A stretch of DNA of 64,000 nt. Origin: Natranaerobius thermophilus JW/NM-WN-LF. GTDB taxonomy: Bacteria > Bacillota > Natranaerobiia > Natranaerobiales > Natranaerobiaceae. The notes under the pieces are model-generated. The model was given only the letters and a program-made list of their open reading frames with translations. It was not told the DNA's origin and did not search any database. Below, one piece after another: positions 17,283 to 38,604 of the stretch; the first letter of the stretch is position 1; each line of letters begins with the position of its first letter. Position numbers and translations under genes: made by a program. The stretch spans positions 2,066,001 to 2,130,000 of the forward strand of contig NC_010718.1 of the NCBI RefSeq assembly GCF_000020005.1. The letters run 5' to 3'.

Positions 17283-17295
17283 AAAAAGTTTGCCG
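17283..17295. terminator. Left half of the ssrA/gshA terminator, split by transposon insertion
   Basis: AAAAAGTTTGCCG is the exact complement of CGGCAAACTTTTT at 37567-37579. Deleting the transposon and one GTAGC copy brings them together as a 13-bp hairpin with loop TTGTAG and A/T runs on both sides. That is a bidirectional rho-independent terminator between gshA (plus) and ssrA (minus). Confidence 0.82.
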
Positions 17296-17297
17296 TT

Positions 17298-17302
17298 GTA
17301 GC
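17298..17302. repeat. Target-site duplication GTAGC (left copy)
   Basis: The five bases just outside the left transposon end equal those just outside the right end (37563-37567). A 5-bp duplication is the hallmark of Tn7-family transposition. Confidence 0.9.
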
Positions 17303-17306
17303 TGTG

Positions 17307-17444
17307 ACTTGAACCGTATCTTTGCCATTTTTTGAATCATAAGTTTGCCAAAAAACTTAATTTAACCCTTTAAATATTGATTATATTCATTTGATTAAGA
17401 AACATATAATTGCCAAAAATTCAAATTGGAAGCATAAAGTTGCC
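17307..17444 (+). repeat. Left-end array of four 20-bp putative TnsB binding sites
   Basis: Sites at 17307-17326, 17330-17349, 17395-17414 and 17425-17444 are all in the same orientation. The second reads TTTTGAATCATAAGTTTGCC. Consensus is roughly nnTTGAAnCATAAGTTTGCC, with GAA and TTGCC best kept. The first site begins inside the terminal repeat. Number and layout resemble the three or four spaced TnsB sites of a Tn7 left end. Confidence 0.8.
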
Positions 17445-18543: not shown

Positions 18544-18583
18544 TGGACTTAGGTCAAAATTTTGGACACCAAAAAGTTAAGTA

Positions 18584-19462
18584 TTAAGCAGATTGCTTTG
18601 CTAGATCCTCAACATGTTGAGGAGTTAAAAACTCCAAACTTCCATGGATTCTTGTTCTGTTGTACCAGCTCTCAATGAACCTAAATAGAGCAATTTCAGC
18701 CGATTTGAAGTCTAAGTACTTAACATGGTTAACTTCTTCCTTTTTCAAAGTAGCATGAAATGATTCGATATGTGCATTGTCATAAGGGCAGCCTTTTCTG
18801 CTAAATGATTGCTTGATCCCTTTGTACCTTAAAAAACGCTTAAAGTCATCGCTAGTGTACTGGGTACCTAGATCACTATGTAGAATAAGTCCATTGCCAG
18901 GTTTCTGTGTATCATAAGCATTTTTAACAGCTTTAATAACTAAATCTGTTGTCATGGTCTTGCTAAAAGAGTATCCAACAATTTTATGGGTGTGTAAATC
19001 CATTACAGAGGCTAAGTAGCACCAGCCGTCTTTAACAGTATCAATGTATGTAATATCAGTAACCCACTTTTGATTGACAAATGTAGTTGAAAAGTCTTGT
19101 TTTAGGAGATTCTCTCGTTCGACTACTTTTTCTCTACTAGGATAAGGCCGATATTTTTTCCTGACAATTGATTTGATACCCTCTTTTCTCATTAATCGTT
19201 GGACTCTTTTTAAGCTGACTTTGTATCCTTTATTGATTAGCACAGCGTGGATCTTTGGTGCACCATATCGCTTTTTACTGTTTTTATGAATTTGAGTTAT
19301 TTGATCTAATAGTTCTCTGTTTTCTTTGTCACGATTAGATTCAACTCGATTTATTGTTTCGTAATAAGTACTTCTCGGAAAGTCTAGAGCATCACAAATA
19401 GCTTTGATAGTATGCTCGTCCTTTTGTTCTTTTATAAATTCAGTAAGCTCTGTATTGTCTAC
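18584..19462 (-). CDS. IS3-family transposase OrfB (DDE integrase domain), copy 1
   Basis: A frame of about 292 residues entered by -1 frameshifting from orfA at an AAAAAG run, with no good start of its own. It has the HTH_21 region (KKRYGAPKIHAVLINKGYKV) and the rve catalytic core: Asp in WVTDITYID, Asp in ILHSDLGTQYTS, Glu in NAHIESFHATLKKE. The OrfAB fusion is the active transposase. The frame is intact, so the copy may be functional. Confidence 0.92.
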   Translation of the reverse strand, partial: VDNTELTEFIKEQKDEHTIKAICDALDFPRSTYYETINRVESNRDKENRELLDQITQIHKNSKKRYGAPKIHAVLINKGYKVSLKRVQRLMRKEGIKSIVRKKYRPYPSREKVVERENLLKQDFSTTFVNQKWVTDITYIDTVKDGWCYLASVMDLHTHKIVGYSFSKTMTTDLVIKAVKNAYDTQKPGNGLILHSDLGTQYTSDDFKRFLRYKGIKQSFSRKGCPYDNAHIESFHATLKKEEVNHVKYLDFKSAEIALFRFIESWYNRTRIHGSLEFLTPQHVEDLAKQSA

Positions 19463-19737
19463 TTTTTGGCGAATATGGTCATAGCCTTTTTTAAGATTTC
19501 ATTCTCCTCTTTCAAGCGAGCCATTTCTTTTTGCATTTCTTCCACATCTTTTGAAGTGGCTCCCTCACTGCCAGATTGTTGGTTTGGAGAGAAATCTTTG
19601 ATCCATTTATAAATAGTAACCTCTGTCACACCATATTCGCTAGACAAATCCTTCACAGAACTACCTGAATTATATAAATCTACAATTGTTCTTTTGAAGT
19701 CTTCATTATATCTCTTATTACTCATTACTGGACACAT
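19459..19737 (-). CDS. IS3-family transposase OrfA (HTH), copy 1
   Basis: 92 residues. An HTH (GSSVKDLSSEYGVTEVTIYK) is followed by a leucine-zipper-like helix, MARLKEENEILKKAMTIFAKK, as in all IS3 OrfA proteins. Translation may really start at the MSNKRYNEDF methionine four codons in. Its end overlaps the orfB frame. Confidence 0.9.
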   Translation of the reverse strand: MCPVMSNKRYNEDFKRTIVDLYNSGSSVKDLSSEYGVTEVTIYKWIKDFSPNQQSGSEGATSKDVEEMQKEMARLKEENEILKKAMTIFAKK

Positions 19738-20439
19738 CCTTTCGTTATTAATATTGTAAGTGACTTAACCATGATGTGTCCAAGAATTTATACTAACACC
19801 ATAGGTTTTACTTAAGTTTTAATAACCCTATGTTTTTAATAAAAGATCCTGTTAGTTTAAATAATTTTGTTAAAAAACTAGAAGCAATTGATGAAATTAA
19901 TGGGTTTAGCATTTCAAACGATAATGATCACATAATGCTTAGTTTAGATGAGTATGACTTTAATATGTCATTAAAGGAAGACAGAATAACCTTCCATGGG
20001 GAAATAATTGATTACGATGATTTTAGAAAGCTAATAGACCTTATTCTAAATGCCTGTTATGATGTTTTTGAATTATCTAGGATAAGTGAAGTAGCTATAG
20101 CATTAGATTGGGGTAAAGAATTTTCACATATAAAGCATGCAGTTAGTTCTTACGTGGATAACTTCACAAAAACAGTCGAAAGACTGGGGAATGTACTTTT
20201 TGGTTCATCTTATTTTACACTAAGAGAGAATGATTATGACATAGACATCGGTATACGCCCAGCTTTTAAAAAGGAAATGGAATCAGGAATTACTGAAAAA
20301 AGGATTCATATTTTAGAGTTTGAAGTAGTTATTGTGAAGAAAGAACCTTCTAAAGGAGATGTAACTGATTTAATTGATAAAGCACATGATATATCATTTG
20401 ATAAAATAAGAAGCATCTTCAAATTGGTAGGAAGTGATT

Positions 20440-21452: not shown

Positions 21453-22601
21453 TTATAAATCAAAGTTATCTCTTCCAACCGTATCACGACCTGGTGACCT
21501 TTCCCCTGGTTTTTTATTACCTTTTACATTTTGGTTTTGTTGACTTTCCTGTTCATTTTCCGATTCCACTTTCTCAATATTTAGCCCTAACATTTCTTCT
21601 AATTTCCCACTATCATTATTATATTGTATTATTTGTTTTTCACCTTCAATTATTTCGGCTGCAATTTGCTCACATTGTGCTATTGTAAGAGCAGTCTTTT
21701 CTAAAATTTCTGCAGTTATTGTATTATCATTGTTATTAATGGCTTTAATTAACGCCCTGGTTAACCAGTTTTTTAAAACTCCTATACACCCAAGACTGTA
21801 CTTATACAATAATTCAAATTTGTCCTCTAGATTTGGAGTTCTTTCTAGAGGTAGTTTGTTTTGAAAAGATTTAATTGCCTTTATGAATAAATACTTCTGG
21901 TTTTCATCATAAGCTAAATATCTATGAAAATGAATAATTTGACTTCGCCTACTAAGTTGTCCATTTAAGTTTAGAAAATGTAAAAGTTCATAAGTACCAA
22001 TTAAAACAGGTAATGCATGCGTTTTATTAGCTAAAGACTTAATTGTATCTAACTGATCTATTAACTTCCTACCACTACCGAGTTTTGTAAGGTGTTGTGC
22101 TTCATCAATGATAAGCACTTTGACTTGACGATAATGGAGCGCCTTTTCAAATGCTCTCCTATACGTTGCCTTGTTTGATTTACTATTCAAATTAGTATTT
22201 AATTTTTTAGATTCTTTTCCATGAGTAACATCTGTTTTATAATCAACAAGTGGCTCCTCTAATTCTACTAATCCTCTATAATAAAAGTCCTTCCAATCAA
22301 ACCCACCTTGGTCTGATGCTATTGCTTCAACTCCTAAAATTGGTATAATGCCTGGGTCATTTTCCATATTTGAAGATTCTTCCTTTAGTATTTCACCTTC
22401 AATTTTGTGGCGCAGTGTTGTTTTACCTACTCCTGTTGGGCCTATCATGAAAACTAATGGAATATTTGATGGGTAATTAATTGTCAGTTCTAATTTTTGA
22501 TAAACATCAATTAGTGTGGCATGTGAAGTGGTATAGTCTTCAAAATACTTTATTCTTTTCTCAATAGGAGCATTTAGTATCGTTTCGGAAGTTTTAGACA
22601 T
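21453..22601 (-). CDS. tnsC: TnsC-like AAA+ ATPase (transposition regulator)
   Basis: A 382-residue AAA+ protein. Walker A is GPTGVGKTT (residues 54-62) and Walker B is VLIIDEAQHL (about 162-171), followed by the sensor region PVLIGTYELLHFLNLNGQLS. TnsC polymerises on target DNA, receives the signal from the TniQ/TnsD selector and activates the transposase. It follows tnsAB by 2 bp, as the last gene of the minus-strand operon. The C-terminus (about 340-382) is low-complexity and hydrophilic. TniB/TnsC subfamily assignment needs a profile search. Confidence 0.88.
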   Translation of the reverse strand: MSKTSETILNAPIEKRIKYFEDYTTSHATLIDVYQKLELTINYPSNIPLVFMIGPTGVGKTTLRHKIEGEILKEESSNMENDPGIIPILGVEAIASDQGGFDWKDFYYRGLVELEEPLVDYKTDVTHGKESKKLNTNLNSKSNKATYRRAFEKALHYRQVKVLIIDEAQHLTKLGSGRKLIDQLDTIKSLANKTHALPVLIGTYELLHFLNLNGQLSRRSQIIHFHRYLAYDENQKYLFIKAIKSFQNKLPLERTPNLEDKFELLYKYSLGCIGVLKNWLTRALIKAINNNDNTITAEILEKTALTIAQCEQIAAEIIEGEKQIIQYNNDSGKLEEMLGLNIEKVESENEQESQQNQNVKGNKKPGERSPGRDTVGRDNFDL

Positions 22602-22603
22602 GT

Positions 22604-25264
22604 CTAAAACTCCTCATAAGTATCTGAATTTTCGTTAGGATCTATCAAATCATCATTAAACACAGGGGGTTCATGTGTAACATTCACTTCATCCACATTT
22701 GGATTGCCAGTAATTTTGTCAATAACATTTTGGTTTTCCATTGCACGTTCTTTTTTCTGCTTTAAAAGTTTACTCTCCTTTTCCTCAATTTGAATCAGGA
22801 AGTTAGCTAGTTTTTTTGCTGATATTGCAGATTTTGAAGGACTTTGTTTTTGTCTTAATTCTTCACTTGCCCTTTTTAATTCCTTTTCAGTGCGATTTTT
22901 GAATACAGAATAGTATTCGGAAATACATTTAACCCAATGTTTATTTACAAAAACATACGCAATACCCATATTGAAGGGGTCATATCTAACCGGAACTTGT
23001 GTATATTCTATTTCAGGGTTTTTAAATTGGTCGTGCCAAAAATACCGTTTATCAATTTTCACACCCCTCCCCGGTTGTACTTTTGCCGTACCTTTTTGTG
23101 TAGAGGGAAGAGTATCAATCTTAAACTGGTCATCATACCTGATTAATCGGGAATACCTTTTTCCTGAATATACCATCCCATCATTGAAAGCGTCTCTTGG
23201 TGTTTGACTCAAAGCAGGATGGGGTGTTGTATCATATAACTCATACCCCCATTCACAAAGAACTGTATAAAGTTCCTCTAATGTCCATATAGCTTTATTT
23301 TTCGGATTTGTTCCTTTAGTTATTTGTCTAACTTTTTTAGTAGCTTGGGTATTCCCCTGGAGATTATATATAAGTTGAGAATGAGTTGTTCCAAACAAAC
23401 GCTCAATTACATTTCCAAAACGAGATTTTGAAGGTGGTCTGGTTTTTTTAATACATTCATAGCGCGCCAGGAAACTATCAAAATATATACTATGAAACTC
23501 TTTTCCACCATCAATAACAAAGTTTTGAGGTAGTCTATTAAATCTTCTGACGCACTCACGAACGACCATCATTATAGACCTATATGACGGTTCATCAAAG
23601 GTTAAATAAATTCCTAATAACCTCCTAGAAAATGCATCAGTCATGAATGTCACCCATGGTTTACCCATGTTTTCTCGTGTAATTGAATTTACCAACTCAA
23701 TATCCATTTGAGTATGATCAATATGGCATATCTCAAATGGTCTGTTTCCATGTTTTGGGGTATTCTGGTCTAATCTTAGCGGTGGTTCATACGGATAACT
23801 AGCTTTCGAACCTTCTCTCTTTTTGACTTTCTCATAGTTGGGGCGTTTATTTATTTCATTTATGAAAGTTTTGTAACTGGATGGTTCCAATCCTTGCTTC
23901 TCACATTCAATTCTAAATTTCTGATAAACAGAATTCTTATTTTTTTGTTTAGTGTTTTCGTAGTCAGTTTCTATTATTTCTTCCATAAGTTCTCTAGTCC
24001 TCTGGTGGATTTGGGGCATTTTATTTCCCTTGTCTTTATGTCTGGGCAATAACCCAACATATCCATTTCCAAAGACTTTTTCAGCTTCTCTGTAGTTTGA
24101 GACCCAATTTCGCAATGTTCTTGGAGGAGTATCCGTATTAGGGTTTTTGCCATTTAAAATAGGTACTATTTCTTCATATCTTTTAGTTGCTATTTCCATT
24201 GCCTCAGGGCTGGCCTTTGATAAAATTTCATTAATTTTTTCATTATCTTTATTTGTGTTTTCACCAATCTTATCTAACTTAACCTTCCCATTTTGTAACA
24301 ATTCTTCAAAACTGTTGTGTGGGAGGTCTATCTGCTGGTTGTCGTCTTGAGATATTAAAGTTATGGTAGTTTCTCCAATGTTAGCTATAGTAAATGAGCG
24401 CCCATCCCAATTTATTTTGTTTCCAATTTTAATATCAATAATTTCTGGTCTTTGTTCCTGAGTTTTTGATATCGAATAATTAAATGCTTTTGCTGTTAAT
24501 TCATCGGGATAAATAGGTGGAGGAAACATTCTACTTCCTAACATTTCATTTTTTAAGTCTACAAATAATTCATTACTTACTATTAGGTGGTATATCGAAT
24601 CAACATATTCCTCTCCTAAACTTTTTATTAACTTATCCAGTTTAATTCCAGGCTCCAAAGTAACTGTCGATATGATTGTATTAACAGTTATATCATCTAC
24701 TTCGATATTATATCTTAAGTAATCTTCTAAGAAAATCGTATTATTATATAAGTTTTCATCTATTTCTGAAGAAGATCTAACTCTAAAGAACAAGCCATAT
24801 TTTTTTGCATACTCTTCTCCAGGCGGACACCGCCATTGACCGTTAGTGTCTTTATAATATCTATTTGGGTTTTTCTCTTCTAATCTAATCAAATCTTCTT
24901 CAGTTTTCCATTCTTCCCATCCAGCCTTATCATCTTCAATTACAAAAAAATCTGGAGTATAGCGCATCCCTTTTGATTGTCCATTTTTTTTGTATTTAAT
25001 AGGTATTGATGGAGGTTGATCATAGAATTCTTTTATTTCGTTGTTATACTCCTTTAAATAAATAGCTGCCAGTTCAACCGTATGGCTCTCGAATTGTATA
25101 GTACACCCCATTTTCTTTGATGGGTAATTACCCCTTACATTTTTGGGGCCACTTTGAACATTTCTAGATGGAGGACTTTCTCTTATGTTTTCAATATATT
25201 TTTTTGTTTGTTCTGGAATTTTGTTCTTTAAACACCAATAATCAAAATCAAAATTTTTTGACAC
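22604..25264 (-). CDS. tnsAB: TnsA-TnsB fusion transposase
   Basis: 886 residues. The N-terminus holds a TnsA-like restriction-endonuclease fold: FES at 58-60 with Glu64, YTPDFFV with Asp105, and EWK at 118-120 (the D...ExK-type centre that cuts the 5' ends). A middle region has TnsB-type HTH segments. The rve/DDE core follows: Asp516 in CHIDHTQMD, Asp585 in FVIDGGKEF, Glu621 in NVIERLFG, with exact D-35-E spacing. A single fused protein could make both cuts for cut-and-paste movement. Fusions like this are known in some type I CRISPR-associated transposons. It starts at GTG after AAAGGAGG. Confidence 0.9.
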   Translation of the reverse strand: MSKNFDFDYWCLKNKIPEQTKKYIENIRESPPSRNVQSGPKNVRGNYPSKKMGCTIQFESHTVELAAIYLKEYNNEIKEFYDQPPSIPIKYKKNGQSKGMRYTPDFFVIEDDKAGWEEWKTEEDLIRLEEKNPNRYYKDTNGQWRCPPGEEYAKKYGLFFRVRSSSEIDENLYNNTIFLEDYLRYNIEVDDITVNTIISTVTLEPGIKLDKLIKSLGEEYVDSIYHLIVSNELFVDLKNEMLGSRMFPPPIYPDELTAKAFNYSISKTQEQRPEIIDIKIGNKINWDGRSFTIANIGETTITLISQDDNQQIDLPHNSFEELLQNGKVKLDKIGENTNKDNEKINEILSKASPEAMEIATKRYEEIVPILNGKNPNTDTPPRTLRNWVSNYREAEKVFGNGYVGLLPRHKDKGNKMPQIHQRTRELMEEIIETDYENTKQKNKNSVYQKFRIECEKQGLEPSSYKTFINEINKRPNYEKVKKREGSKASYPYEPPLRLDQNTPKHGNRPFEICHIDHTQMDIELVNSITRENMGKPWVTFMTDAFSRRLLGIYLTFDEPSYRSIMMVVRECVRRFNRLPQNFVIDGGKEFHSIYFDSFLARYECIKKTRPPSKSRFGNVIERLFGTTHSQLIYNLQGNTQATKKVRQITKGTNPKNKAIWTLEELYTVLCEWGYELYDTTPHPALSQTPRDAFNDGMVYSGKRYSRLIRYDDQFKIDTLPSTQKGTAKVQPGRGVKIDKRYFWHDQFKNPEIEYTQVPVRYDPFNMGIAYVFVNKHWVKCISEYYSVFKNRTEKELKRASEELRQKQSPSKSAISAKKLANFLIQIEEKESKLLKQKKERAMENQNVIDKITGNPNVDEVNVTHEPPVFNDDLIDPNENSDTYEEF

Positions 25265-25823
25265 AACAATTTCCTCCTTTATAATATTAAATTAATCCTA
25301 ATTCCATTTTTGTTTCTAACCAGGTTTTTCTTGCCTTTTCGTTAGATTCAATTATCCTTTTACCAAAGACCTCTTGAACTTTGCGCCTACTAGGATATAT
25401 GTTCTGTTGATGTAATTTTTTGGTTATCTCAATAACTTTTCGGCATTCATTTTTAATCCTTTCTTCTTGCTCTAATCTAATGAATTGTTTTCTGCGATCA
25501 ACAATTTTTTTACTTAATTTAGGAAAATATTTATATAGACTTTTATCACTTATTCCTATTAACTTTACAATTTCTTTTAATGAAGGAGGTGAATCCTCAG
25601 TTAGTGCATTTTCTAAGAAGCTTTTAATTTTTTCTAGATCTAAAGATACGTTATGATTTCTCTTTTTACGAGGAGGAACGCTTCTAGTATTTTCAAAGTT
25701 TTTAAAACTATAACTTAATCTTTCATTAGTTAATATTTGATAAGGTGAAATTTTAAGTATGGTGTTAGTATAAATTCTTGGACACATCATGGTTAAGTCA
25801 CTTACAATATTAATAACGAAAGG

Positions 25824-26102
25824 ATGTGTCCAGTAATGAGTAATAAGAGATATAATGAAGACTTCAAAAGAACAATTGTAGATTTATATAATTCAGGTAG
25901 TTCTGTGAAGGATTTGTCTAGCGAATATGGTGTGACAGAGGTTACTATTTATAAATGGATCAAAGATTTCTCTCCAAACCAACAATCTGGCAGTGAGGGA
26001 GCCACTTCAAAAGATGTGGAAGAAATGCAAAAAGAAATGGCTCGCTTGAAAGAGGAGAATGAAATCTTAAAAAAGGCTATGACCATATTCGCCAAAAAGT
26101 AG
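25824..26102 (+). CDS. IS3-family transposase OrfA (HTH), copy 2
   Basis: Same 92-residue product as in copy 1: HTH plus C-terminal zipper helix. It ends FAKK-stop at the AAAAAG frameshift site shared with orfB. Confidence 0.9.
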   Translation: MCPVMSNKRYNEDFKRTIVDLYNSGSSVKDLSSEYGVTEVTIYKWIKDFSPNQQSGSEGATSKDVEEMQKEMARLKEENEILKKAMTIFAKK

Positions 26103-26977
26103 ACAATACAGAGCTTACTGAATTTATAAAAGAACAAAAGGACGAGCATACTATCAAAGCTATTTGTGATGCTCTAGACTTTCCGAGAAGTACTTATTAC
26201 GAAACAATAAATCGAGTTGAATCTAATCGTGACAAAGAAAACAGAGAACTATTAGATCAAATAACTCAAATTCATAAAAACAGTAAAAAGCGATATGGTG
26301 CACCAAAGATCCACGCTGTGCTAATCAATAAAGGATACAAAGTCAGCTTAAAAAGAGTCCAACGATTAATGAGAAAAGAGGGTATCAAATCAATTGTCAG
26401 GAAAAAATATCGGCCTTATCCTAGTAGAGAAAAAGTAGTCGAACGAGAGAATCTCCTAAAACAAGACTTTTCAACTACATTTGTCAATCAAAAGTGGGTT
26501 ACTGATATTACATACATTGATACTGTTAAAGACGGCTGGTGCTACTTAGCCTCTGTAATGGATTTACACACCCATAAAATTGTTGGATACTCTTTTAGCA
26601 AGACCATGACAACAGATTTAGTTATTAAAGCTGTTAAAAATGCTTATGATACACAGAAACCTGGCAATGGACTTATTCTACATAGTGATCTAGGTACCCA
26701 GTACACTAGCGATGACTTTAAGCGTTTTTTAAGGTACAAAGGGATCAAGCAATCATTTAGCAGAAAAGGCTGCCCTTATGACAATGCACATATCGAATCA
26801 TTTCATGCTACTTTGAAAAAGGAAGAAGTTAACCATGTTAAGTACTTAGACTTCAAATCGGCTGAAATTGCTCTATTTAGGTTCATTGAGAGCTGGTACA
26901 ACAGAACAAGAATCCATGGAAGTTTGGAGTTTTTAACTCCTCAACATGTTGAGGATCTAGCAAAGCAATCTGCTTAA
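26099..26977 (+). CDS. IS3-family transposase OrfB (DDE integrase domain), copy 2
   Basis: Frame of about 292 residues, reached from orfA by a -1 shift (orfA TAG at 26100-26102; orfB codons run from GTA 26099). It has the same DDE residues as copy 1 (WVTDITY, HSDLGTQY, HIESFHA). The frame is intact. Confidence 0.92.
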   Translation, partial: VDNTELTEFIKEQKDEHTIKAICDALDFPRSTYYETINRVESNRDKENRELLDQITQIHKNSKKRYGAPKIHAVLINKGYKVSLKRVQRLMRKEGIKSIVRKKYRPYPSREKVVERENLLKQDFSTTFVNQKWVTDITYIDTVKDGWCYLASVMDLHTHKIVGYSFSKTMTTDLVIKAVKNAYDTQKPGNGLILHSDLGTQYTSDDFKRFLRYKGIKQSFSRKGCPYDNAHIESFHATLKKEEVNHVKYLDFKSAEIALFRFIESWYNRTRIHGSLEFLTPQHVEDLAKQSA

Positions 26978-27942
26978 TACTTAACTTTTTGGTGTCCAAA
27001 ATTTTGACCTAAGTCCATATATAACACAACTTCAATATTGAATTAAATGAAGGAAAATTATTTTTATTAACCCAAGTCCCTACAGTATTTTTGGGAATTT
27101 CTATATAATTAGCTAGTAAATTAATACTTCCCGCTTGTTTTACAATTTTCTTTAAATTATTTATGAAAATATCTTGTTTTGGTAAATTCTCTACATTAGA
27201 ACTTTGTCTAACAAATTCACTTAAACTCTCACTAATGAAGTACTGCCAACCCAAATCATCAACACACCTTGCAACATGTTCCCTCCCCAACCAGTTTCCA
27301 CAAATCGAACAAAATCCAGGTTTGAATTTATTTGTAAAGGCAAACATTTTATTGAAGCAGTAAGGACAAGTATCTTCTAAGTAATTGTCATGTACTTTAC
27401 AAATATTCAAATCATTGAAATGCCATAATAAAGGATTATATATTTCTTTATTTTTTGATACAGCCATTTCCTCATAACAATAGGGACACCATCTAAACTT
27501 ACTACTAAGTAATTTATAATTTACTATTACTTCTGAATATTTAAGCATTGTTAAGAAACTCAAATCACACCTCAAAGTAAAATCCTGCATAATAGTTACG
27601 TATTCTTCTGCTGTAATAGTTAATCCATTAATATTATAAAAATTGCTGTCATAGGAAGTATTATTAAAACTATTCTTGAATTGAAATCCACCACTAAATT
27701 GAGATAACTGTTTCTCTTTATTCATATGAGGTAACAATAACAAAGCAACAAGTTTTCCAGTATATAAGCTATGAGACTCTGCAACTCTAGCAATATAGCT
27801 AGTTAAACTTTCCACCTTTTCTGTTCCAACGCCTATTGGTTGCAAATTATTCAAATAACTTCTTTTTGGTATTTTGATTTCCTCATCTTCCATAATTGGA
27901 AAAATCTCCTTCAATAGTTCTACCCCTCTCGCCGTTTTTATT

Positions 27943-29608: not shown

Positions 29609-29645
29609 CGAAATTGCCCTTATTGGTAACTAGAAGTTTAACAAT

Positions 29646-30704: not shown

Positions 30705-30736
30705 AATTATCCTCCTTAGAAGGCTTAAAAACTGCT

Positions 30737-31232: not shown

Positions 31233-32705
31233 CTATTTATCTTTTAAAACTTCTTTTAATAATTCAATTGCACTTTCATCTTTAGGATCATTAGTATTTA
31301 ACTCTCCACGAAAGGCTTTAGAAAGAATAGATTGTTCTAGTTCAGCAACATAGGTTCCCAAATTTAATAAGTTTTGTATTCTATTCTCCTTTGCACTTAC
31401 TTTCTTCATGATTCTATTAATTTCCTTAATTTCTTCTTCAGGAGGTAGTGGTACTGGTAATGATGATAGTTTCTTTGAATTGATATTAGCCTGTCCTACT
31501 TGTTGTTTAACTGTAGATAGTAGATATTTTCGTCCAATATGACTATTAATATAATAACAAATATATGGTGCTAAAATCTTTTTGTAAAATAGCGAGATCT
31601 TTATCAAATATGAAGCATACGTAAATTTTCCAGCATGTTCTGGCTCAACAATTGCCGATTTTCCAACTAGCTCATAACTATTTGTTCTGTTAAACAATAA
31701 ATCATATTCTTCTAGTTTATATTTTTCTACATCTTTGTGATCAAAAGGAAGGTATTTTAGATCATTTAAATCAATACTTCCAGTTAATTTAATATTACCC
31801 ATCCTAAGAACAGGTAAACCATTTATATCTTTATAAGCCTTTGCAGATGTTCCATACGAAGAATGACAAATTAGTTCCCCTAAATCAATCCAACACCAAT
31901 TATCCGGAAGTTCATATAAACCATTGGGGCTTTTTTTAATATCAGTTTTCTTCTCAGAATTTATTTTAGCTAGCAAAGTATCTACTGACTCAACTCTCGG
32001 ATTTTCCTCACGCCACGTCAATTCCCCTTTAAAAGCCTTATCTAATATAGCTGCACGACGTAGTTCAAAAGTTTCTTTAGCTTCTCCTATTAATTCTTTT
32101 GCTTTATTAATTTTACTTAAAAGGCGATCAACTTTATAAACTATTCTTCTTTGTTCATTTTTCGGTGCTATTGGTATACTTATTTGCTTCAAATTTTTTT
32201 GATTTAAGCTAACTTGATTGACTGCCATTTTAATTCTTTTCAATACAGCTTTTCTAAAATTATAGGACCTCGTGTATAATTGGAGAAACTGAGGCAGAAT
32301 CATATTATTATTTACTCTAATTCTTAATAAATTCATTCCATGTATTAAAGGTAGATAATCTTCCTTAATCAAAGCAGTTTTACCTACATGTTCAATGCTA
32401 TTTATATGGCTTAAAACAATATCTCCAATTTTATAATAATCATTATTTTTGATTTTATCTAAATCCCTTATATATCTAACTCTATCCAGTTGTATTTCGT
32501 TGTTTTGAATTGATTCTATCCTCGTGACAGGTATCCCAGGTTTGGTCTTGCTTTGTTTTATTGTAGTTCCATTTTTAATTTCTTCTGCTAGTATGTCTAA
32601 TGCAACCCAAGCCCAGTTATTAGGCAGTTCATAAGGTTCTTCGTCTTCATGAACAATAGTTTCTTCTAATAATTCTTCTATTCTTTTGCTCTTCTTATCA
32701 GTCAT
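31233..32705 (-). CDS. hsdS: Type I restriction-modification specificity subunit
   Basis: 490 residues with the duplicated S-subunit plan. The first target recognition domain begins at ELPNNWAWVALDILAEEIKN. It is followed by a conserved helical repeat (IAPKNEQRRIVYKVDRLLSK, then RRAAILDKAFKGELTWREEN). The second recognition domain begins at LPDNWCWIDLGELI and is followed by LPPEEEIKEINRIMKKV and AELEQSILSKAFRGELN. It determines the split DNA target of the complex. It overlaps hsdM by 8 bp. The target sequence cannot be deduced. Confidence 0.94.
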   Translation of the reverse strand: MTDKKSKRIEELLEETIVHEDEEPYELPNNWAWVALDILAEEIKNGTTIKQSKTKPGIPVTRIESIQNNEIQLDRVRYIRDLDKIKNNDYYKIGDIVLSHINSIEHVGKTALIKEDYLPLIHGMNLLRIRVNNNMILPQFLQLYTRSYNFRKAVLKRIKMAVNQVSLNQKNLKQISIPIAPKNEQRRIVYKVDRLLSKINKAKELIGEAKETFELRRAAILDKAFKGELTWREENPRVESVDTLLAKINSEKKTDIKKSPNGLYELPDNWCWIDLGELICHSSYGTSAKAYKDINGLPVLRMGNIKLTGSIDLNDLKYLPFDHKDVEKYKLEEYDLLFNRTNSYELVGKSAIVEPEHAGKFTYASYLIKISLFYKKILAPYICYYINSHIGRKYLLSTVKQQVGQANINSKKLSSLPVPLPPEEEIKEINRIMKKVSAKENRIQNLLNLGTYVAELEQSILSKAFRGELNTNDPKDESAIELLKEVLKDK

Positions 32706-34137
32706 TTTTATCCTCTCCTGATTCAGAAATTCCTGTTTCCTTTAATTCATCAATAACCTCATTAAGTAAAGATGCAGCTTCTTGAAGTTTACATACTGTT
32801 TTTTCCGCTGATTCAATTGGATCTGGTAAATTTTCATATATTGATAGCGATTCATCCTGAATCAGACCTAAATCTAAACTGTCATTTTTCTTACGAATAT
32901 CCTCTCTTGTAAAGCAATTAAACCTCTCATTTTTTATTTTAGTTCTATCTACGGCTTTATAGGCTTTAATAAAGTCATCAAAGTGATCTTTTCTCAATGG
33001 ATTGGTTTTCCCTAAACTCTCCATGTTAGTTCTTAAATCATATACCCATACTTCTTTGGTATTGTCTTTATCCGTTTGCCCTCTAGTAAAGAATAACACA
33101 TTAGTTTTAACACCTTGAGCATAAAAGATACCTGTTGGTAAGCGCAGTATGGTATGAAGGTTACACTTCTCCATTAAATCATTTCTAATCTTTGCTCCCG
33201 TATTATCCTCAAATAACACATTATCTGGTAATACTACAGCAGCACGTGCCTTCCCGTTTGGTTTTAATGATCTATATATGTGTTGAAGGAAGTTTAACTG
33301 TTTATTAGTTGTAGTATAAGTTAAATCGTCCCTAGTCGGTCTTTCTCCACTTTTCTTAGTGCCAAAAGGTGGATTAGTTAGAACTACATCATAGTTTTTT
33401 AAGTTCTTTCCAGCTTCAGATAATGTATCACCTAAAATAATTTCACCTTCCAATTCATGTAGCATCGCATTCATTAAACCCAGCCTGTGAACATCTTTAA
33501 CTAGCTCACAACCTGTAAAAGCTTCTTTTACTTGAAATTCAGCTTCTTTTTGACTTAAAGAGAAGTAGTCATCTGTTTTCTTTCTTACATGTCTGTCTGC
33601 AGCAATCATGAAACCAAAAGTACCTGCAGCTGGGTCATTACATCTTTCTCCTGGTTCAGGATCAGTTAGCTCAACTATAGTATCAATAAGAGGACGCGGT
33701 GTGAAATACTGACCCGCGCCTGTCTTAGTTTCATTTGCGTTTTTCTCTAACAAACCTTCATAAAGGGCTCCAAGCCCTTCTTCTCTAGCACTATACCAGT
33801 CTAACCTGTCTATTGACTGTATAATCTTTTCGAGATTTTTAGGTTCATCTATATTGGTTGTAGCATTCATATATATCTGACTTAATAATTTATTTTTGGA
33901 TTGACCAATGTCAAGTAATAATTGTCTATAATGGTTGTATAGTTCCATACCGTGTTTTGTAGTTAAAGAATCCCAACGATATTCTTTAGGAATCACTTCT
34001 TCTGTTTCCTTTTCTTTCATCATTTTTAGAAATAAAATATAAGTTAGCTCTGTTACATATTGGTGATAAGTAACCCCATCATCTCTAAGTACATCACATA
34101 AACTCCAAAGTTTTTGAATAATTTCTTGATTTGTCAT
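32698..34137 (-). CDS. hsdM: Type I restriction-modification DNA methyltransferase subunit
   Basis: 479 residues. The SAM-binding region is NDPAAGTFGFMIAAD, and the catalytic motif NPPFG sits in NYDVVLTNPPFGTKKSG, typical of N6-adenine methylases. GAGQYFTPRPLIDTIVEL precedes it, as in all HsdM. The N-terminal helical domain starts MTNQEIIQKLWSLCDVLRDD. It forms M2S1 with HsdS for host methylation and R2M2S1 with HsdR for cleavage. It overlaps hsdR by 1 bp. Confidence 0.96.
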   Translation of the reverse strand: MTNQEIIQKLWSLCDVLRDDGVTYHQYVTELTYILFLKMMKEKETEEVIPKEYRWDSLTTKHGMELYNHYRQLLLDIGQSKNKLLSQIYMNATTNIDEPKNLEKIIQSIDRLDWYSAREEGLGALYEGLLEKNANETKTGAGQYFTPRPLIDTIVELTDPEPGERCNDPAAGTFGFMIAADRHVRKKTDDYFSLSQKEAEFQVKEAFTGCELVKDVHRLGLMNAMLHELEGEIILGDTLSEAGKNLKNYDVVLTNPPFGTKKSGERPTRDDLTYTTTNKQLNFLQHIYRSLKPNGKARAAVVLPDNVLFEDNTGAKIRNDLMEKCNLHTILRLPTGIFYAQGVKTNVLFFTRGQTDKDNTKEVWVYDLRTNMESLGKTNPLRKDHFDDFIKAYKAVDRTKIKNERFNCFTREDIRKKNDSLDLGLIQDESLSIYENLPDPIESAEKTVCKLQEAASLLNEVIDELKETGISESGEDKND

Positions 34138-37100
34138 TAGACGTGATCCCTTCCTTCCTGGTTAAATAGTTCCTCATTAATTTTTTCAACAATCATATCT
34201 ATTTGTCCATCAAAAATCTTATTTAATTGCTTATAACCTCCATGTCTTTTAAATGGTTGGACTTCGAAAGCTTCTTCTGGATCCGGGCCTAGTACCTTTT
34301 CTTCTAAAAGTTGCTTTTCTATTCTTTCAAGCCATTTTTTTTGTACAGGTGGCCATGCTTTCATTCTATAGATTCTTTTCATTGCATTTTTGACTCTCTC
34401 TTCATGACTAACTAATGCATCACCCACTGTTAACTGTCTAATAAAGCTTATAATATCAGCTGCTATATCTTCATTTTTAGCATCTCTCCAAGCAGCTTGC
34501 AAGTTCTTTTCGTTATAACCTTGTTGATCAAGTTCTATTTTAAGTTTTCTTAAATCCTCTCTAGTAAGCTCCTTAGGTCTCTGACAAACTACTTTTAATG
34601 CAGGGATGTGATTTATATTTTCTTCAATAAACTGTTTAAACCCTTCTAAATAATCTTCAGGCTTTTCTGCGTTCCCATAACCCCTAGTTGTAGATAAGTG
34701 TTCATCCTTATGGTTTGAGATATACTGATATTGAGGTCTTTCACGGTTTTCATCAATGTAATTAACTATACTTTCACTTTTTTGCAACTCATTTACAATT
34801 TCTTCTGTTTCTGAGTTTTTCATCCAATCAATATATTCATCAACAGTTTTTCCGCCAGTCAATGCTTTAAAATTTTCTTTTTCTTCTTCGGTCCAATGTT
34901 TACTTTTACGTTGAATTTTTGCTTTAATTTGATCTATATGATTTTTTTGCTTATCAGTTGAGTTTATCTGTTCTAGTTCATTTACCAACTGTTTCACTGG
35001 TACATTTGGTTTTTTTACAACGGGTTTCATATCAGTATAAGGCTTTAAAGCTTCGTAAATTTCTACTGCATCAAATATATTAAAGTGATCCTTATCAATC
35101 TCATCACATCTTCTAGTTGCCCTACCTAGCATTTGTTCATATAAGATTCGTGACCGTACCCTTCGCATAAACACAAGACTACAAATAGGTGGCACATCAA
35201 CGCCTGTAGTAAGTAAATCAACAGTCACAACAATATTAGGTAAACGTTCGTTTTGAAATAATTTTATTGCTTGGAGTGGATTTTTTAGGGACCCAGTTAT
35301 TTTCATAACTGCATTGTCTTCAATTGGACCATATTTATTTTCTAATTCTTCCTTTAATATTCTTACAATTGTGTCAGCATGATCATCATTAGCAGCAAAT
35401 ATTAAAGTTTTTCCCTCTAGCTCCGGATGAATATAGTTCACGAGTTCTTTAATGACAGTTCTGTTAAAACTTTCAGTTATTACTTGTTTGTTAAATTGGG
35501 AGACATCTATTTCTACCTCATCTTCCATAACTTCTTTCTTTATATCTCCACTTTTGGCATCATAAACATCTACTTCTTCTCCAACTTGCCAATTAATCCC
35601 TTCTTTCTTTAATTTAGTATTAATTTGATATGGGGGCTCATGGTCAATTAAATAACCATCTACCACTGCTTCACGATAGGAATAGGTATATATTGGGCTC
35701 CCAAAAATTTCCACAGTATGAAGAGCTGGTGTTGCAGTAAGCCCAATTCTAACAGCATCAAAGTAATCAAGTACCTGACGATATTTACTAACATAGTCAT
35801 TATGATCTCTAAAGTATAGTTCTAGCTCTTCCATTTCGCTGTCTAAAGTATAGCCTCGATGTGCTTCATCTACCACTATACAATCATATTGATCAACTGT
35901 AGGTTTGTCCTTTTCAGGATCATTATAATATATTCTTCGCATCATTCCTTGCACAGTAGAAATATGGACTTTAGTTTCTGGATTTGGGTTAGGTGCTTTA
36001 AGAGACTGTAGCTCAAATATTTCAGTAAACGAGTTAAAACTTTCTAGCTTTGAATCTTTAAAGGCATTCTCAGCTTGCTTTCCAAGAGCGTTTCTGTCAA
36101 CTAGAAATAAAACTCTCTTAAATCTTCTGGACTTAACCAAACGGTATATTAACCCAATTGCCATTCTCGTTTTACCTGTTCCTGTTGCCATAGCTATAAG
36201 AAGACTTTGTCTTCCTTCTTCTAATCCCTTTTCAATAGCTTTTATAGCTTCTTCTTGATAGTAGCGTAATCCAAGATAATCTAACGGTTCTTCTTTCAGT
36301 TCTTTAGTTGCTTCTTCTATATTTTTCTTTGATAAATCTGTTAGTCCTTCTGGAGAGTACCAATCCTTCAGAGGCCGAGGATGATTAGTTTTCTTTCTTG
36401 CATCTAAAAACCAAATACCAGATTTGTGTTCTAGTTGCTTTAAATAAGGACGACCATTAGTAGCAAATAGAAAAGGTACTTTGTATCCGTTCCATGGACC
36501 TGATATTTCTTCATTTTCCACCTGATAGATTCGTTTGGAGTATTGCTTAGCCTGCTCTATATCAGATTGTATGTTCTTACTTTTTCGCTTAGCTTCTATA
36601 ATCCCTATAAATTGCATTCCTACAAACAAGGCATAGTCAACAGAGCCATTTTTGACAGGCCATTCAGCAATAGCAAGGTTTCGTCCCTTTTCTGGACGTA
36701 TACCCTTACTATATCGGATAGTTTCTGTATCAGCTTCCCAACCAACAGCTCTTAATTTATCATCTATAATAGTACGTGTTTCAGCTTCAGTTAATTCCAA
36801 GCCTGTGCCTAGTTGCCTGGCTTTTGTTTTTCGCTCTTTTTTCTCATCATCCCGACTAGCTTTACTTCTTAAACTATTTAATTCATTTTCTAGTTTTTTA
36901 ACCTTCTTCTCATAAGAAGATGCAATTTTCTCTAATCTTTCTCTTTCTTTTTCAAGCGATTCAAAATCTATTTTTTCAGGTTCAACATATGCAGGTGGTT
37001 CAAAATCCCATCTGCCATAAACTTGCATAAACCAAACTGATATACGAAAAGCCATCCTCAGAAGAGTTTTTGCATCATCAATATTCCCATACCCAGCATG

Positions 37101-37385
37101 AGCGGCCTTGTTTCCTATTTTTCTGATTGTATGAAATAAATCTAGCAAGTCATCTGTAAGTAAATCTTCTTTTTTCAATATGGCTAATCGAGATACTTGT
37201 TTCTGATCTTCAGGTTCTTCAAGATTTTCTACAGCAAAAATAAACTTCACTAATGTTTCTGCAAACATGCGAAGTTTAATTATTGTCGTATTGGGGTCAG
37301 TATGTAGGTTTTTTTCGGCTATCTCTCCTAATTCTGAAAGAATAGACCAGTCACCTGTTAAGAAATCAAAGTTGCTCTTTTGCAT
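34137..37385 (-). CDS. hsdR: Type I restriction endonuclease subunit R (EcoEI/EcoR124-like)
   Basis: 1082 residues. The N-terminus (1-130) is a DUF4145-type domain, followed by a coiled coil (about 140-180). The nuclease domain has SVDYALFVGMQFIGIIEAKR, the D...EAK site. Helicase motifs follow: ATGTGKTRMA (Walker A), CIVVDEAHRG, GLTATP and MLGRATRRCD. It translocates DNA and cuts far from the site when unmethylated. The C-terminus contains a QLNKIFDGQIDMIVEKINEE tail as in the EcoEI_R_C family. It starts at ATG 37385 after AGGGGGT and is the first gene of the operon. Confidence 0.95.
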   Translation of the reverse strand: MQKSNFDFLTGDWSILSELGEIAEKNLHTDPNTTIIKLRMFAETLVKFIFAVENLEEPEDQKQVSRLAILKKEDLLTDDLLDLFHTIRKIGNKAAHAGYGNIDDAKTLLRMAFRISVWFMQVYGRWDFEPPAYVEPEKIDFESLEKERERLEKIASSYEKKVKKLENELNSLRSKASRDDEKKERKTKARQLGTGLELTEAETRTIIDDKLRAVGWEADTETIRYSKGIRPEKGRNLAIAEWPVKNGSVDYALFVGMQFIGIIEAKRKSKNIQSDIEQAKQYSKRIYQVENEEISGPWNGYKVPFLFATNGRPYLKQLEHKSGIWFLDARKKTNHPRPLKDWYSPEGLTDLSKKNIEEATKELKEEPLDYLGLRYYQEEAIKAIEKGLEEGRQSLLIAMATGTGKTRMAIGLIYRLVKSRRFKRVLFLVDRNALGKQAENAFKDSKLESFNSFTEIFELQSLKAPNPNPETKVHISTVQGMMRRIYYNDPEKDKPTVDQYDCIVVDEAHRGYTLDSEMEELELYFRDHNDYVSKYRQVLDYFDAVRIGLTATPALHTVEIFGSPIYTYSYREAVVDGYLIDHEPPYQINTKLKKEGINWQVGEEVDVYDAKSGDIKKEVMEDEVEIDVSQFNKQVITESFNRTVIKELVNYIHPELEGKTLIFAANDDHADTIVRILKEELENKYGPIEDNAVMKITGSLKNPLQAIKLFQNERLPNIVVTVDLLTTGVDVPPICSLVFMRRVRSRILYEQMLGRATRRCDEIDKDHFNIFDAVEIYEALKPYTDMKPVVKKPNVPVKQLVNELEQINSTDKQKNHIDQIKAKIQRKSKHWTEEEKENFKALTGGKTVDEYIDWMKNSETEEIVNELQKSESIVNYIDENRERPQYQYISNHKDEHLSTTRGYGNAEKPEDYLEGFKQFIEENINHIPALKVVCQRPKELTREDLRKLKIELDQQGYNEKNLQAAWRDAKNEDIAADIISFIRQLTVGDALVSHEERVKNAMKRIYRMKAWPPVQKKWLERIEKQLLEEKVLGPDPEEAFEVQPFKRHGGYKQLNKIFDGQIDMIVEKINEELFNQEGRDHV

Positions 37386-37450: not shown

Positions 37451-37455
37451 TTAAT

Positions 37456-37490
37456 AAAAAAACCCATGGAAGTAATTACCATGAGTTTTT
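37456..37490 (-). terminator. Rho-independent terminator inside the right end
   Basis: Minus-strand hairpin AAAAACTCATGG / CCATGGGTTTTT with one mismatch, followed by seven T residues. It stops transcription coming from ssrA before it reaches the hsd promoter. Confidence 0.8.
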
Positions 37491-37558
37491 GAAGTAAAAG
37501 TTTGCCACCTCTATTTTGAAGTAAAAGTTTGCCGCTGCGGCAAACTTATGGTTCAAGT
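37487..37558. repeat. Right-end array of three 20-bp putative TnsB binding sites
   Basis: Two exact copies of TTTTGAAGTAAAAGTTTGCC lie at 37487-37506 and 37514-37533 (period 27) on the plus strand. A third site, ACTTGAACCATAAGTTTGCC, is on the minus strand at 37558-37539 and starts in the terminal repeat. The outer site matches the left-end orientation (inverted), while the inner two face it. This differs from classical Tn7, whose right-end sites are all tandem. Confidence 0.78.
37525..37547 (-). terminator. Right-end hairpin that may replace the ssrA terminator
   Basis: Back-to-back binding sites create AAGTTTGCCGC / GCGGCAAACTT, followed on the minus strand by TTTT. The retained ssrA terminator arm (minus AAAAAGTTTGCCG) could also pair with the same CGGCAAACTTTT strand. 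Either fold would give a terminator downstream of ssrA. Confidence 0.5.
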
Positions 37559-37562
37559 CACA

Positions 37563-37567
37563 GTAGC
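37563..37567. repeat. Target-site duplication GTAGC (right copy)
   Basis: Identical to 17298-17302 and directly abutting the right terminal ACA. Confidence 0.9.
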
Positions 37568-37579
37568 GGCAAACTTTTT
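37567..37579. terminator. Right half of the ssrA terminator, split by transposon insertion
   Basis: CGGCAAACTTTTT, exact complement of 17283-17295; it lies 12 bp beyond the tmRNA 3' end. Its partner is now 20 kb away. Confidence 0.8.
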
Positions 37580-37591
37580 AGCTATTTTGTC

Positions 37592-37950
37592 TGGTGGAGG
37601 CGGGGGGAATTGAACCCCCGTCCGGAGATGCCCAAGCAAGAGGCTCTACGAGCGTAGCCTCTAATTTTTGATTTCGCTTTACAAGGCTCCTAGAGGCGGG
37701 ATCCTTGTAAAGCTAGCCTCAATTGGTTTCCCGGAACGAGCGAGGCAACTCACACCGGTATCCTGCTAGGGTTGGCGCCCGGTCTCGTTCCCGCAGGAAA
37801 GGAACGAGTGGACGTGCTACGTTAATTTACGCAGCAGCTAAAGCGTAATCTTCGTCGGCATTTAAATTTACGATCCATGTTTTATCCAGGCCATGGTCCT
37901 GGGCTCGCTCCTCTTACTCCAACATCCCCGTCGAATCCAAGCTCGCCCCC
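37592..37950 (-). ncRNA. ssrA: Transfer-messenger RNA (tmRNA)
   Basis: A 359-nt gene. The 5' end GGGGGCGAGCTTGGATTCGA and the 3' end GGTTCAATTCCCCCCGCCTC followed by CACCA fold into the tRNA-like domain, with acceptor GGGGGCG pairing to CGCCTCC. The CCA is encoded. The tag reading frame ends NLNADEDYALAAA before TAA (codons around 37870-37830). The RNA rescues stalled ribosomes with SmpB, whose gene lies directly upstream. Its 3' region is the likely target recognised by the transposon. Confidence 0.97.
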
Positions 37951-38003: not shown

Positions 38004-38032
38004 TATATAACAAATTACAACTTTAATGTCAA
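38004..38032 (-). promoter_or_regulatory. ssrA promoter
   Basis: Minus strand TTGACA (38032-38027), 17-base spacer, TATATA (38009-38004). The -35 box overlaps the smpB stop codon. A leader of about 45 nt would be removed by 5' processing. Confidence 0.78.
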
Positions 38033-38493
38033 TATTTTTGCTTTTCTTTTAGAGCCTTTTCCATCTCTCTTTCCATGGTCTTTCGCTTGATGCTTTCTCG
38101 TTTATCGTGTTTTTGTTTACCCTTGGCAAGAGCCAATTCAACCTTTATTATTCCATCCTTCACGTAAAAAGTCAGGGGAATTAAAGTGTATCTTCGCTGT
38201 TGAGTGAGACCGAGTAATCGTTTGATCTCTCGTTTGTGAAGGAGAAGTTTTCTCGTTCTGGTGGGCTCGTGATTGAATTGATTCCCTTCATTGTAGTGAC
38301 TTATATGAACATTATACAGGAAAATCTCGCCCTTTTCAATCTTAGCAAAACCGTCCTTCAAATTTACACTGCGATTTTTACAGGATTTCACTTCTGTCCC
38401 TTTAAGTTCAATACCAGCTTCATAGCGTTCTTCAATGAAAAACTCGTGTTCTGCCTTTCTATTGCGTGCTAAGACCATTACATCTTCTGCCAT
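38029..38493 (-). CDS. smpB: SsrA-binding protein
   Basis: 154 residues from ATG 38493 (AGGAGG seven bases upstream; an ATG six codons earlier overlaps the ribosome site). Conserved stretches include ARNRKAEHEFFIEERYEAGI, ELKGTEVKSCKNRSVNLKDG, YNVHISHYNEGNQFNHEPTR and the basic C-terminal tail KGKQKHDKRESIKRK. It binds the tRNA-like domain of tmRNA and brings it to stalled ribosomes. The adjacent smpB-ssrA pair is the usual arrangement. Confidence 0.97.
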   Translation of the reverse strand: MAEDVMVLARNRKAEHEFFIEERYEAGIELKGTEVKSCKNRSVNLKDGFAKIEKGEIFLYNVHISHYNEGNQFNHEPTRTRKLLLHKREIKRLLGLTQQRRYTLIPLTFYVKDGIIKVELALAKGKQKHDKRESIKRKTMEREMEKALKEKQKY

Positions 38494-38604
38494 ACTATCG
38501 CCTCCTGGCATACTCTGAATTGTTTCCGAAATTATATTATATTAATTAAGAACGAATTAGTCAAAATTCCTAGTTCTTAGCCCAAGCAAATTATAAAATG
38601 ACTT

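What the first reader, a model, noticed from the sequence alone, without database searches (positions are those of the whole stretch)
37567..37579. Target hairpin and transposase sites share the 9-mer AAGTTTGCC
The ssrA terminator stem (AAGTTTGCCG) and the core of the element's binding sites (AAGTTTGCC) are identical over nine bases. Either the ends evolved to mimic the terminator, or the target was already an old transposon end, or it is chance. This also makes the true border easy to misplace by 20 bp.
Basis: partly seen in the sequence, partly recalled or inferred. Interest (0 to 1): 0.55.

Follow-up and report, generated by a model that had tools for sequence, protein, structure and literature searches.

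The report
Transposon splits a tmRNA terminator
A Tn7-like jumping element has landed inside the stop signal (terminator) of the tmRNA gene, and the short sequence it shares with that signal may let the element's own end fold up as a replacement stop signal.

Summary
The shared sequence is real, and longer than reported. A Tn7-like element (TnsA-TnsB fusion, TnsC, TniQ; window 17303-37562, 5-bp duplication GTAGC) sits at the loop of the ssrA (tmRNA) terminator. Of six AAGTTTGCC copies, two (17286, 37568) are the split arms of the host hairpin; four are site cores in the element's ends. The arms still match over 13 nt across 20 kb, so the stem predates the insertion.

I found the element's transposase in 22 other genomes; in 21 a right end lies just past ssrA, starting 27-32 nt after the CCA (one exception: G723, no encoded CCA). 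So the target is ssrA at a nearly fixed distance, as Tn7 uses glmS, not the 9-mer. G823 and G524 also split a terminator but share no stem with it.

Terminator-like hairpins facing ssrA occur in 16 of 23 right ends (60 shuffle sets: mean 0.65, maximum 3). Here the host arm and inverted site R2 agree over 14 nt, so the transcript could rebuild the stem. A 9-mer match is near chance (p 0.02); 14 nt is not (4e-5). Cause unsettled: selection for a rebuilt terminator, chance, or an old-end relic, in that order.

The parts
17283..17295 (+). Left half of the split ssrA terminator stem (host DNA, AAAAAGTTTGCCG), holding the 9-mer copy at 17286
17298..17302 (.). Target-site duplication GTAGC, left copy
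17303..17326 (+). Left terminus TGTGACTTGAACC plus putative transposase site L1
17330..17349 (+). Putative site L2 (contains AAGTTTGCC)
17395..17414 (+). Putative site L3 (diverged)
17425..17444 (+). Putative site L4 (diverged)
18544..19803 (-). IS3-like insertion sequence (name by recall from its domains), copy 1; 100% identical inverted copy of 25758-27017
21453..22601 (-). TnsC/TniB-type AAA ATPase
   Evidence: AAA_22 4.2e-15, TniB 5.3e-15
22604..25264 (-). TnsA-TnsB fusion transposase
   Evidence: TnsA N-term 5.9e-10, rve 1.1e-7 (0.1 bit under its cut-off), Mu-transpos_C 1.3e-5; D516, D585, E621 invariant in the 3 aligned, the catalytic role inferred
25287..25790 (-). C-terminal part of a TnsD-like protein, cut off by the insertion sequence at 25758-27017
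   Evidence: one open frame with TniQ in G385 and G394
25758..27017 (+). IS3-like insertion sequence, copy 2, lying between the two TnsD-like parts
27009..27914 (-). TniQ part of the TnsD-like target selector
   Evidence: TniQ 7.1e-14
31233..37385 (-). Cargo: type I restriction-modification hsdS, hsdM, hsdR
37452..37490 (-). Terminator-like hairpin inside the right end, in ssrA sense
37487..37506 (+). Putative transposase site R3
37514..37533 (+). Putative transposase site R2, inverted relative to R1; 37523-37536 complements the host arm over 14 nt
37539..37562 (-). Right terminus and putative site R1 (TGTGACTTGAACCATAAGTTTGCC)
37563..37567 (.). Target-site duplication GTAGC, right copy
37567..37579 (-).
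37592..37950 (-). ssrA (tmRNA), the attachment gene

Best explanation
A Tn7-like element of a TnsAB-fusion family that homes to the 3' end of ssrA inserted 24 bp past the tmRNA CCA, with a 5-bp duplication. In this host that point is the loop of the ssrA terminator, so the hairpin was cut in two; its arms are the outer 9-mer copies (shown by sequence). The inner copies are cores of TnsB-type sites in the element's ends (inferred from the conserved layout; no binding data). The target is probably chosen from the tmRNA 3' end by the TnsD-like protein (inferred from the near-constant distance across hosts), not from the 9-mer. Right ends of the family usually carry a terminator-like hairpin facing ssrA, which would stop ssrA transcription at the border (inferred). 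Here the host 5' arm can pair with R2 over 14 bp and re-form the lost stem (predicted fold). The sharing beyond the usual site core is most likely kept by selection for that re-formed terminator (about 40%), with chance (about 35%) and a relic of an older end (about 15%) as rivals.
For: Termini, duplication and genes. Empty site folds as a 13-bp stem; filled site pairs the host arm with R2. Family: 23 genomes including this one, best TnsAB match 42-48% in the others. ssrA is on the same contig and strand, upstream of tnsAB, in 18 of 23 (tnsAB places from those calls, tmRNA places). In 4 more a right end adjoins ssrA on another contig. G559 is the one miss. The terminus starts 27-32 nt after CCA in 21 of 21 tabulated ends, G000 and G012 among them, and at 29 in G561. 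G723 has no encoded CCA; its terminus is 37 nt past the last acceptor base. Left ends with matching duplications were found in 10 of 15 others searched (the duplication was a search criterion, and G418's is an A-run). G823 and G524 also have the insertion at the terminator loop. Terminators in ssrA sense: 16 of 23 right ends, antisense 3 of 23, control stretch 2 and 1 of 23; 60 shuffle sets mean 0.65, maximum 3; left ends 0 of 11 inward, 2 of 11 outward. For selection on R2: its outer four bases are CATA in 20 of 21 elements, this element being the exception. The change yields the A-tract that pairs with the host arm and a short U-tract.
Against: R3 carries the same departure as R2 (20-nt identity), so homogenisation of R2 and R3 could explain it without selection; R3 lacks CATA in 5 of 21 elements. 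R1-R2 complementarity at variable columns is no better than R1-R3 (3.14 against 3.33 of 5), so hairpin pairing is not selected family-wide. The left host arm is still a perfect match, which suggests a recent insertion with little time to adapt in place. The U-tract after R2 is weak (TTTTAC), and a separate terminator-like hairpin lies at 37452-37490. G823 and G524 lost a terminator without any shared stem. Having a host terminator left upstream did not clearly matter: 6 of 11 such ends carry an element terminator against 10 of 12 without (my tally; no test run). The TnsD-ssrA link rests on position alone.
Confidence: 0.72

Rival explanations
1. Chance. The family's site core (CATA-NNNN-TTGCC) and a host terminator stem (A-tract, then GC-rich) happened to agree; nothing was selected.
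For: AAGTTTGCC is an ordinary variant of the family core: R1 of G821 and G012 has it too. A 9-mer match arises in 2.2% of shuffles. In mismatched host/end pairs shared stretches reach 12 nt (462 ordered pairs), and another element's own pair reaches 10 nt, T-rich (G821). The site palindrome and the host palindrome make both arms match once one does.
Against: 14 nt has p = 4e-5 against shuffles, and 0 of 462 mismatched pairs reach 13. Multiplied by 23 elements looked at, about 0.001 (my arithmetic).
Confidence: 0.35
2. Relic. The host terminator is itself the decayed R1-R2 palindrome of an older element at the same site, so target and ends are alike by descent.
For: Old right ends beside ssrA elements recur, read by eye: left flanks of G394, G429, G787 and G729 and second ends inside G705 and G798. 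G012 has a right-end-like palindrome as its apparent ssrA terminator, with no match to this element's TnsAB, TnsC or TniQ in the 40 kb read.
Against: A standard insertion places AAGTTTGCC of R1 at nt 45 after CCA (46 in G012); the host stem has it at nt 16, so a deletion of 29 nt is needed. Spacing between the TTTGCC cores is 8 nt, against 4-5 in the 21 ends. No R3 trace at the expected place in the left flank (read by eye). G001 and G002 have other stems.
Confidence: 0.15
3. The element is drawn to the hairpin because its transposase binds AAGTTTGCC in the target.
For: Insertion lies at the centre of a palindrome made of two site cores.
Against: Sisters insert at nearly the same distance from CCA in hosts whose flank has no such core. 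Tn7 needs no particular sequence at its insertion point (PMC2918618, passages).
Confidence: 0.04

Closest known systems
Tn7 at attTn7 (glmS)
   Same: Insertion at a fixed distance past a conserved gene, TnsA/B/C plus a TniQ-domain selector, 5-bp duplication (last point recalled). The title of Gay et al. 1986, seen as a reference in PMC2918618 and PMC10201428, says that Tn7 inserts into the glmS transcriptional terminator.
   Different: TnsA and TnsB are one protein here, the gene is ssrA (an RNA gene), and the ssrA-proximal end itself carries terminator-like hairpins. Whether glmS transcripts end inside Tn7 was not checked (paper not held).
TnsAB-fusion Tn7-like elements with tRNA attachment sites (I-B2 and I-D CAST branch)
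   Same: Fused TnsAB and a TnsD that targets the 3' side of a tRNA-type gene; CyCAST homing occurs around 30-33 nt downstream of the end of a tRNA-Leu gene (PMC10293859, passage). The review PMC11406308 (passages) says the fused branch uses different tRNA genes.
   Different: Target is tmRNA. No Cascade genes appeared among the element's ORFs scanned. tmRNA and ssrA have 0 occurrences in the main text of either paper. I built no tree with these elements.
Integrase-type elements in tRNA and tmRNA genes
   Same: ssrA is a well-used integration locus: PMC10121019 (passages) reports an E. coli hotspot within the tmRNA locus holding prophages, satellites, mobilizable elements and transposons (kind not stated in the passage). 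Williams 2002 and 2003 seen as references only.
   Different: Those are described there as integrase subfamilies; this is a DDE transposon that lands past the gene.

Membership tests
Tn7-like transposon | TnsA endonuclease and TnsB DDE transposase | tested here: met
   domains (rve 0.1 bit under its cut-off); D516, D585, E621 invariant in 3 of 3
Tn7-like transposon | TnsC-type AAA ATPase | tested here: met
Tn7-like transposon | TniQ/TnsD target selector | tested here: met
   TniQ domain present, but the gene is interrupted by an IS3-like element
Tn7-like transposon | TG...CA termini with several repeated sites at both ends and a 5-bp duplication | tested here: met
   sister elements
Tn7-like transposon | Insertion at fixed distance and orientation past an attachment gene | tested here: met
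   27-32 nt in 21 of 21 tabulated right ends; same strand in 18 of 18 same-contig cases
Tn7-like transposon | Binding of TnsB to the repeats and of TnsD to the ssrA 3' end | not testable with these tools
   needs purified proteins
CRISPR-associated transposon (CAST) | Cascade or Cas12k genes within the element | tested here: not met
   none in the Pfam and PADLOC scans of the element's ORFs given; only weak helicase-level hits of hsdR to Cas3 and type IV DinG models
Functional intrinsic terminator at the right end | Hairpin followed by a U-tract that ends ssrA transcripts | tested here: inconclusive
   hairpin and U-tract predicted; termination itself not tested

The most novel reading that the evidence does not exclude
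The element's right end is a terminator prosthesis fitted to its host: it lands in the terminator loop of an RNA gene, and its second transposase site has been rewritten at otherwise near-invariant positions so that the orphaned host arm pairs with it and the terminator is rebuilt. Transposase sites would then serve at once in transposition and in ssrA 3'-end formation.
Probability: 0.35. Interest if true: 0.65.

Novelty: new variant of a known kind. Interest (0 to 1): 0.42.

Why it matters
It shows a Tn7-like family, found here in at least three orders of the window's phylum, that uses the tmRNA gene as its attachment site and whose ends tend to carry a stop signal facing that gene. This offers a reason why landing in a terminator can be harmless, and a testable case in which transposase sites and a terminator may be the same sequence. 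It also fixes the element's borders, which the shared sequence makes easy to misplace.

Tried and rejected
Mimicry as a family rule: rejected. G823 and G524, which split terminators, share at most 7 and 6 nt between host flank and end, and AAGTTTGCC is in R2 of 1 of 21 ends only.

Selection on the R1-R2 hairpin across the family: not supported. Identity at variable columns is R1-R2 3.14, R1-R3 3.33, R2-R3 3.00 of 5; counting G-U pairs 3.86, 3.52 and 3.38. All three exceed permuted partners (p 0.0008, 0.0076, 0.0014), so an element's sites simply resemble each other. Site positions were picked by eye; the script checked only that they occur in order.

Element-free close relatives: none nearer than G001 and G002 among the 60 relatives drawn; their terminators are unrelated. 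In one search, 4 of 30 loci gave no parse (L010, L018, L026, L031), and 30 of the 61 genomes had loci fetched. G012 first looked like an empty relative; it has a right-end-like palindrome 30 nt past CCA and no Tns match in 40 kb, so I treat it as a remnant or a diverged element. It counts among the ends, not among the 23 TnsAB genomes.

Genome-contig scan: one weak relative (28%, Cellvibrio MAG), not used. G334 (27%, residues 424-773) was left out of the family counts. The searches were centred on genomes already known to carry the element, so their hit rates are not unbiased. Own-genome search for the full hairpin pattern found only R1-R2.

Left ends not found for G821, G840, G426, G475 and G723. 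G561 was left out (no clear R3), and G723 out; G723 was compared separately (7 nt). The terminator scan misses imperfect hairpins (G385 and G429 look positive by eye but count as negative). G561's flank shares 9 inverted nt with its own terminus, a length reached inverted by 19 of 462 mismatched pairs.

Literature: nine searches listed no paper that I could see to be on tmRNA or ssrA as a Tn7-like attachment site. I saw listings, and passages only, of PMC10293859, PMC11406308, PMC8649781, PMC2918618, PMC10201428, PMC12056078, PMC12452197, PMC6563490 and PMC10121019. The one ssrA in PMC12452197 is a qPCR reference gene. The cyanobacterial I-D paper, Gay 1986 and Williams 2003 are not held, so this is not proof of absence.

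Full report
What is there. The finding's coordinates, 37567-37579, hold CGGCAAACTTTTT, which read on the strand of ssrA is AAAAAGTTTGCCG, the first arm of the tmRNA gene's terminator. The tmRNA is at 37592-37950, minus strand, and SmpB follows at 38029-38511. AAGTTTGCC occurs six times in the window; the most in 100 shuffles is four.

Borders. The two termini read TGTGACTTGAACC, from 17303 rightward and from 37562 leftward, and each is flanked outside by GTAGC (17298-17302 and 37563-37567). Between them lie a TnsA-TnsB fusion (22604-25264), a TnsC/TniB ATPase (21453-22601), a TniQ protein (27009-27914) and a type I restriction-modification cargo. D516, D585 and E621, which I take as the catalytic triad, are invariant in the three fusion proteins aligned. 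Joining the flanks at GTAGC gives AAAAAGTTTGCCG-CTACAA-CGGCAAACTTTTT, a 13-bp stem with a U-tract; 75 nt around it fold at -19.4 kcal/mol. The copies at 17286 and 37568 are therefore the two halves of one host terminator, and the stem is older than the insertion. The other four copies lie in the element's ends.

How strong is the match. R2 (37514-37533, with the three bases after it) matches the host arm over 14 bases in inverted orientation, and the end matches it over 11 in direct orientation. A shared 9-mer appears in 2.2% of shuffles of the host flank, a shared 14-mer in 0.004%. The 12-mer AAAGTTTGCCGC is found at only those two places in the whole genome. The chromosome length of 3,165,557 matches my recollection of Natranaerobius thermophilus; no call names the organism.

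Relatives. The fusion protein was sought in 398 genomes of the phylum (4 hits at 1e-20: this genome, G394, G385 and the weak partial G334, left out), in 150 and then 397 genomes of G394's order (6 and 19 hits at 1e-60, the first set within the second) and in 73 of G385's order (3 hits). That gives 23 genomes including this one. tmRNA positions put ssrA on the same contig and strand, upstream of tnsAB, in 18 of 23. In four more (G418, G475, G705, G629) a right end adjoins ssrA on another contig. In G559 no end is seen at ssrA. With G012, which has an end but no Tns match in the 40 kb read, 23 right ends were examined.

Layout of the ends. In 21 of 21 tabulated right ends, G000 and G012 among them, the terminus starts 27-32 nt after the tmRNA CCA. 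R1 is followed by a 4-5 nt gap, R2 in inverted orientation, and R3 after 15 nt (16 in one). G561 has 29 nt. G723 encodes no CCA and has 37 nt from the last acceptor base. Left ends with the same 5-bp duplication were found for 10 of 15 others; the duplication was part of the search. The point of insertion varies in sequence but hardly in distance. I infer that the TnsD-like protein reads the tRNA-like 3' end of ssrA. Tn7's TnsD reads the end of glmS, with insertion about 25 bp beyond its binding site and no other sequence needed (PMC2918618, passages). CyCAST homes around 30-33 nt past a tRNA (PMC10293859, passage).

Terminators. Whether the host terminator is hit depends on its position. In 11 of 23 a host hairpin with a U-tract, made of CCACCA and its complement, is complete before the element. 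In G000, G823 and G524 the hairpin's loop lies at the insertion point and the hairpin is split. Within the first 300 nt of the element a terminator-like hairpin in ssrA sense is found in 16 of 23, against 3 antisense (each where a sense one lies), and 2 and 1 in a control stretch of the same loci. Sixty shuffle sets give a mean of 0.65 and a maximum of 3; left ends give 0 of 11 inward and 2 of 11 outward. In seven (G821, G840, G787, G418, G012, G723, G000) the R1-R2 palindrome itself is scored; from +72 onward there are 10. The window's element has both kinds: R1-R2 with a weak U-tract, and a better one at 37452-37490. In the predicted transcript the orphaned host arm pairs with R2 or, in the longest fold, with R3 around an R1-R2 hairpin.

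Why the bases agree. For selection: R2's outer four bases are CATA in 20 of 21 elements; here they are TAAA, which is what pairs with the host's A-tract. Against it: R3 has the same change, R1-R2 pairing is not favoured family-wide, the other two split cases show no match, and the untouched left arm suggests a recent event. If selection acted, it probably acted in earlier hosts with the same terminator. A relic is possible because old ends recur beside ssrA in this family (by eye), but here it would need an extra deletion of 29 nt. Chance remains serious because AAGTTTGCC is a normal core variant.

State of the element. An IS3-like element (25758-27017, identical inverted copy at 18544-19803) separates TniQ from a C-terminal part that is one reading frame in G385 and G394. 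Targeted movement of this copy is probably lost (inference).

Novelty. Landing in a terminator is known for Tn7 at glmS (title of Gay et al. 1986 in reference lists). The tmRNA locus is a known integration hotspot, explained in the passage seen by integrase subfamilies (PMC10121019, passages). Nine searches listed no report that I could see of ssrA as a Tn7-like attachment site. Neither tmRNA nor ssrA occurs in the main text of four Tn7 papers. Most subscription papers are not held, so an earlier report may exist.

Noticed in passing
window 25287-27914: The TnsD-like gene is interrupted by an IS3-like element; an identical inverted copy sits at 18544-19803 in the same element.
   Followed up: partly
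L037:1975-2608 (G394): The tmRNA gene has about 280 extra bases between the T-arm and the 3' end, like an intron; the tmRNA 3' ends of several relatives (L056, L058, L060, L084-L089) are displaced by a similar length.
   Followed up: no
L036:170-215 (G394), left flanks of G429, G787, G729; inside G705 and G798: Second, apparently older right ends lie directly beside the present element (by eye), so ssrA seems to have been hit repeatedly and remnants stay in tandem.
   Followed up: partly
L022:1852-1970 (G012): A right-end-like R1-R2-R3 array is the apparent ssrA terminator with no Tns match within 40 kb, a possible exapted transposon end.
   Followed up: partly
L038:11050-12620 (G385): A transposase-bearing insertion sequence (IS256-like, by recall) appears to split the stem of the displaced former ssrA terminator on the far side of the element.
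   Followed up: no
window 29342-31189: Cargo beside the type I restriction system includes an EVE-domain protein (30737-31189) and a DUF6946 fragment (29342-29608); the 352-aa protein between them has no Pfam or PADLOC match at 0.001.
   Followed up: no
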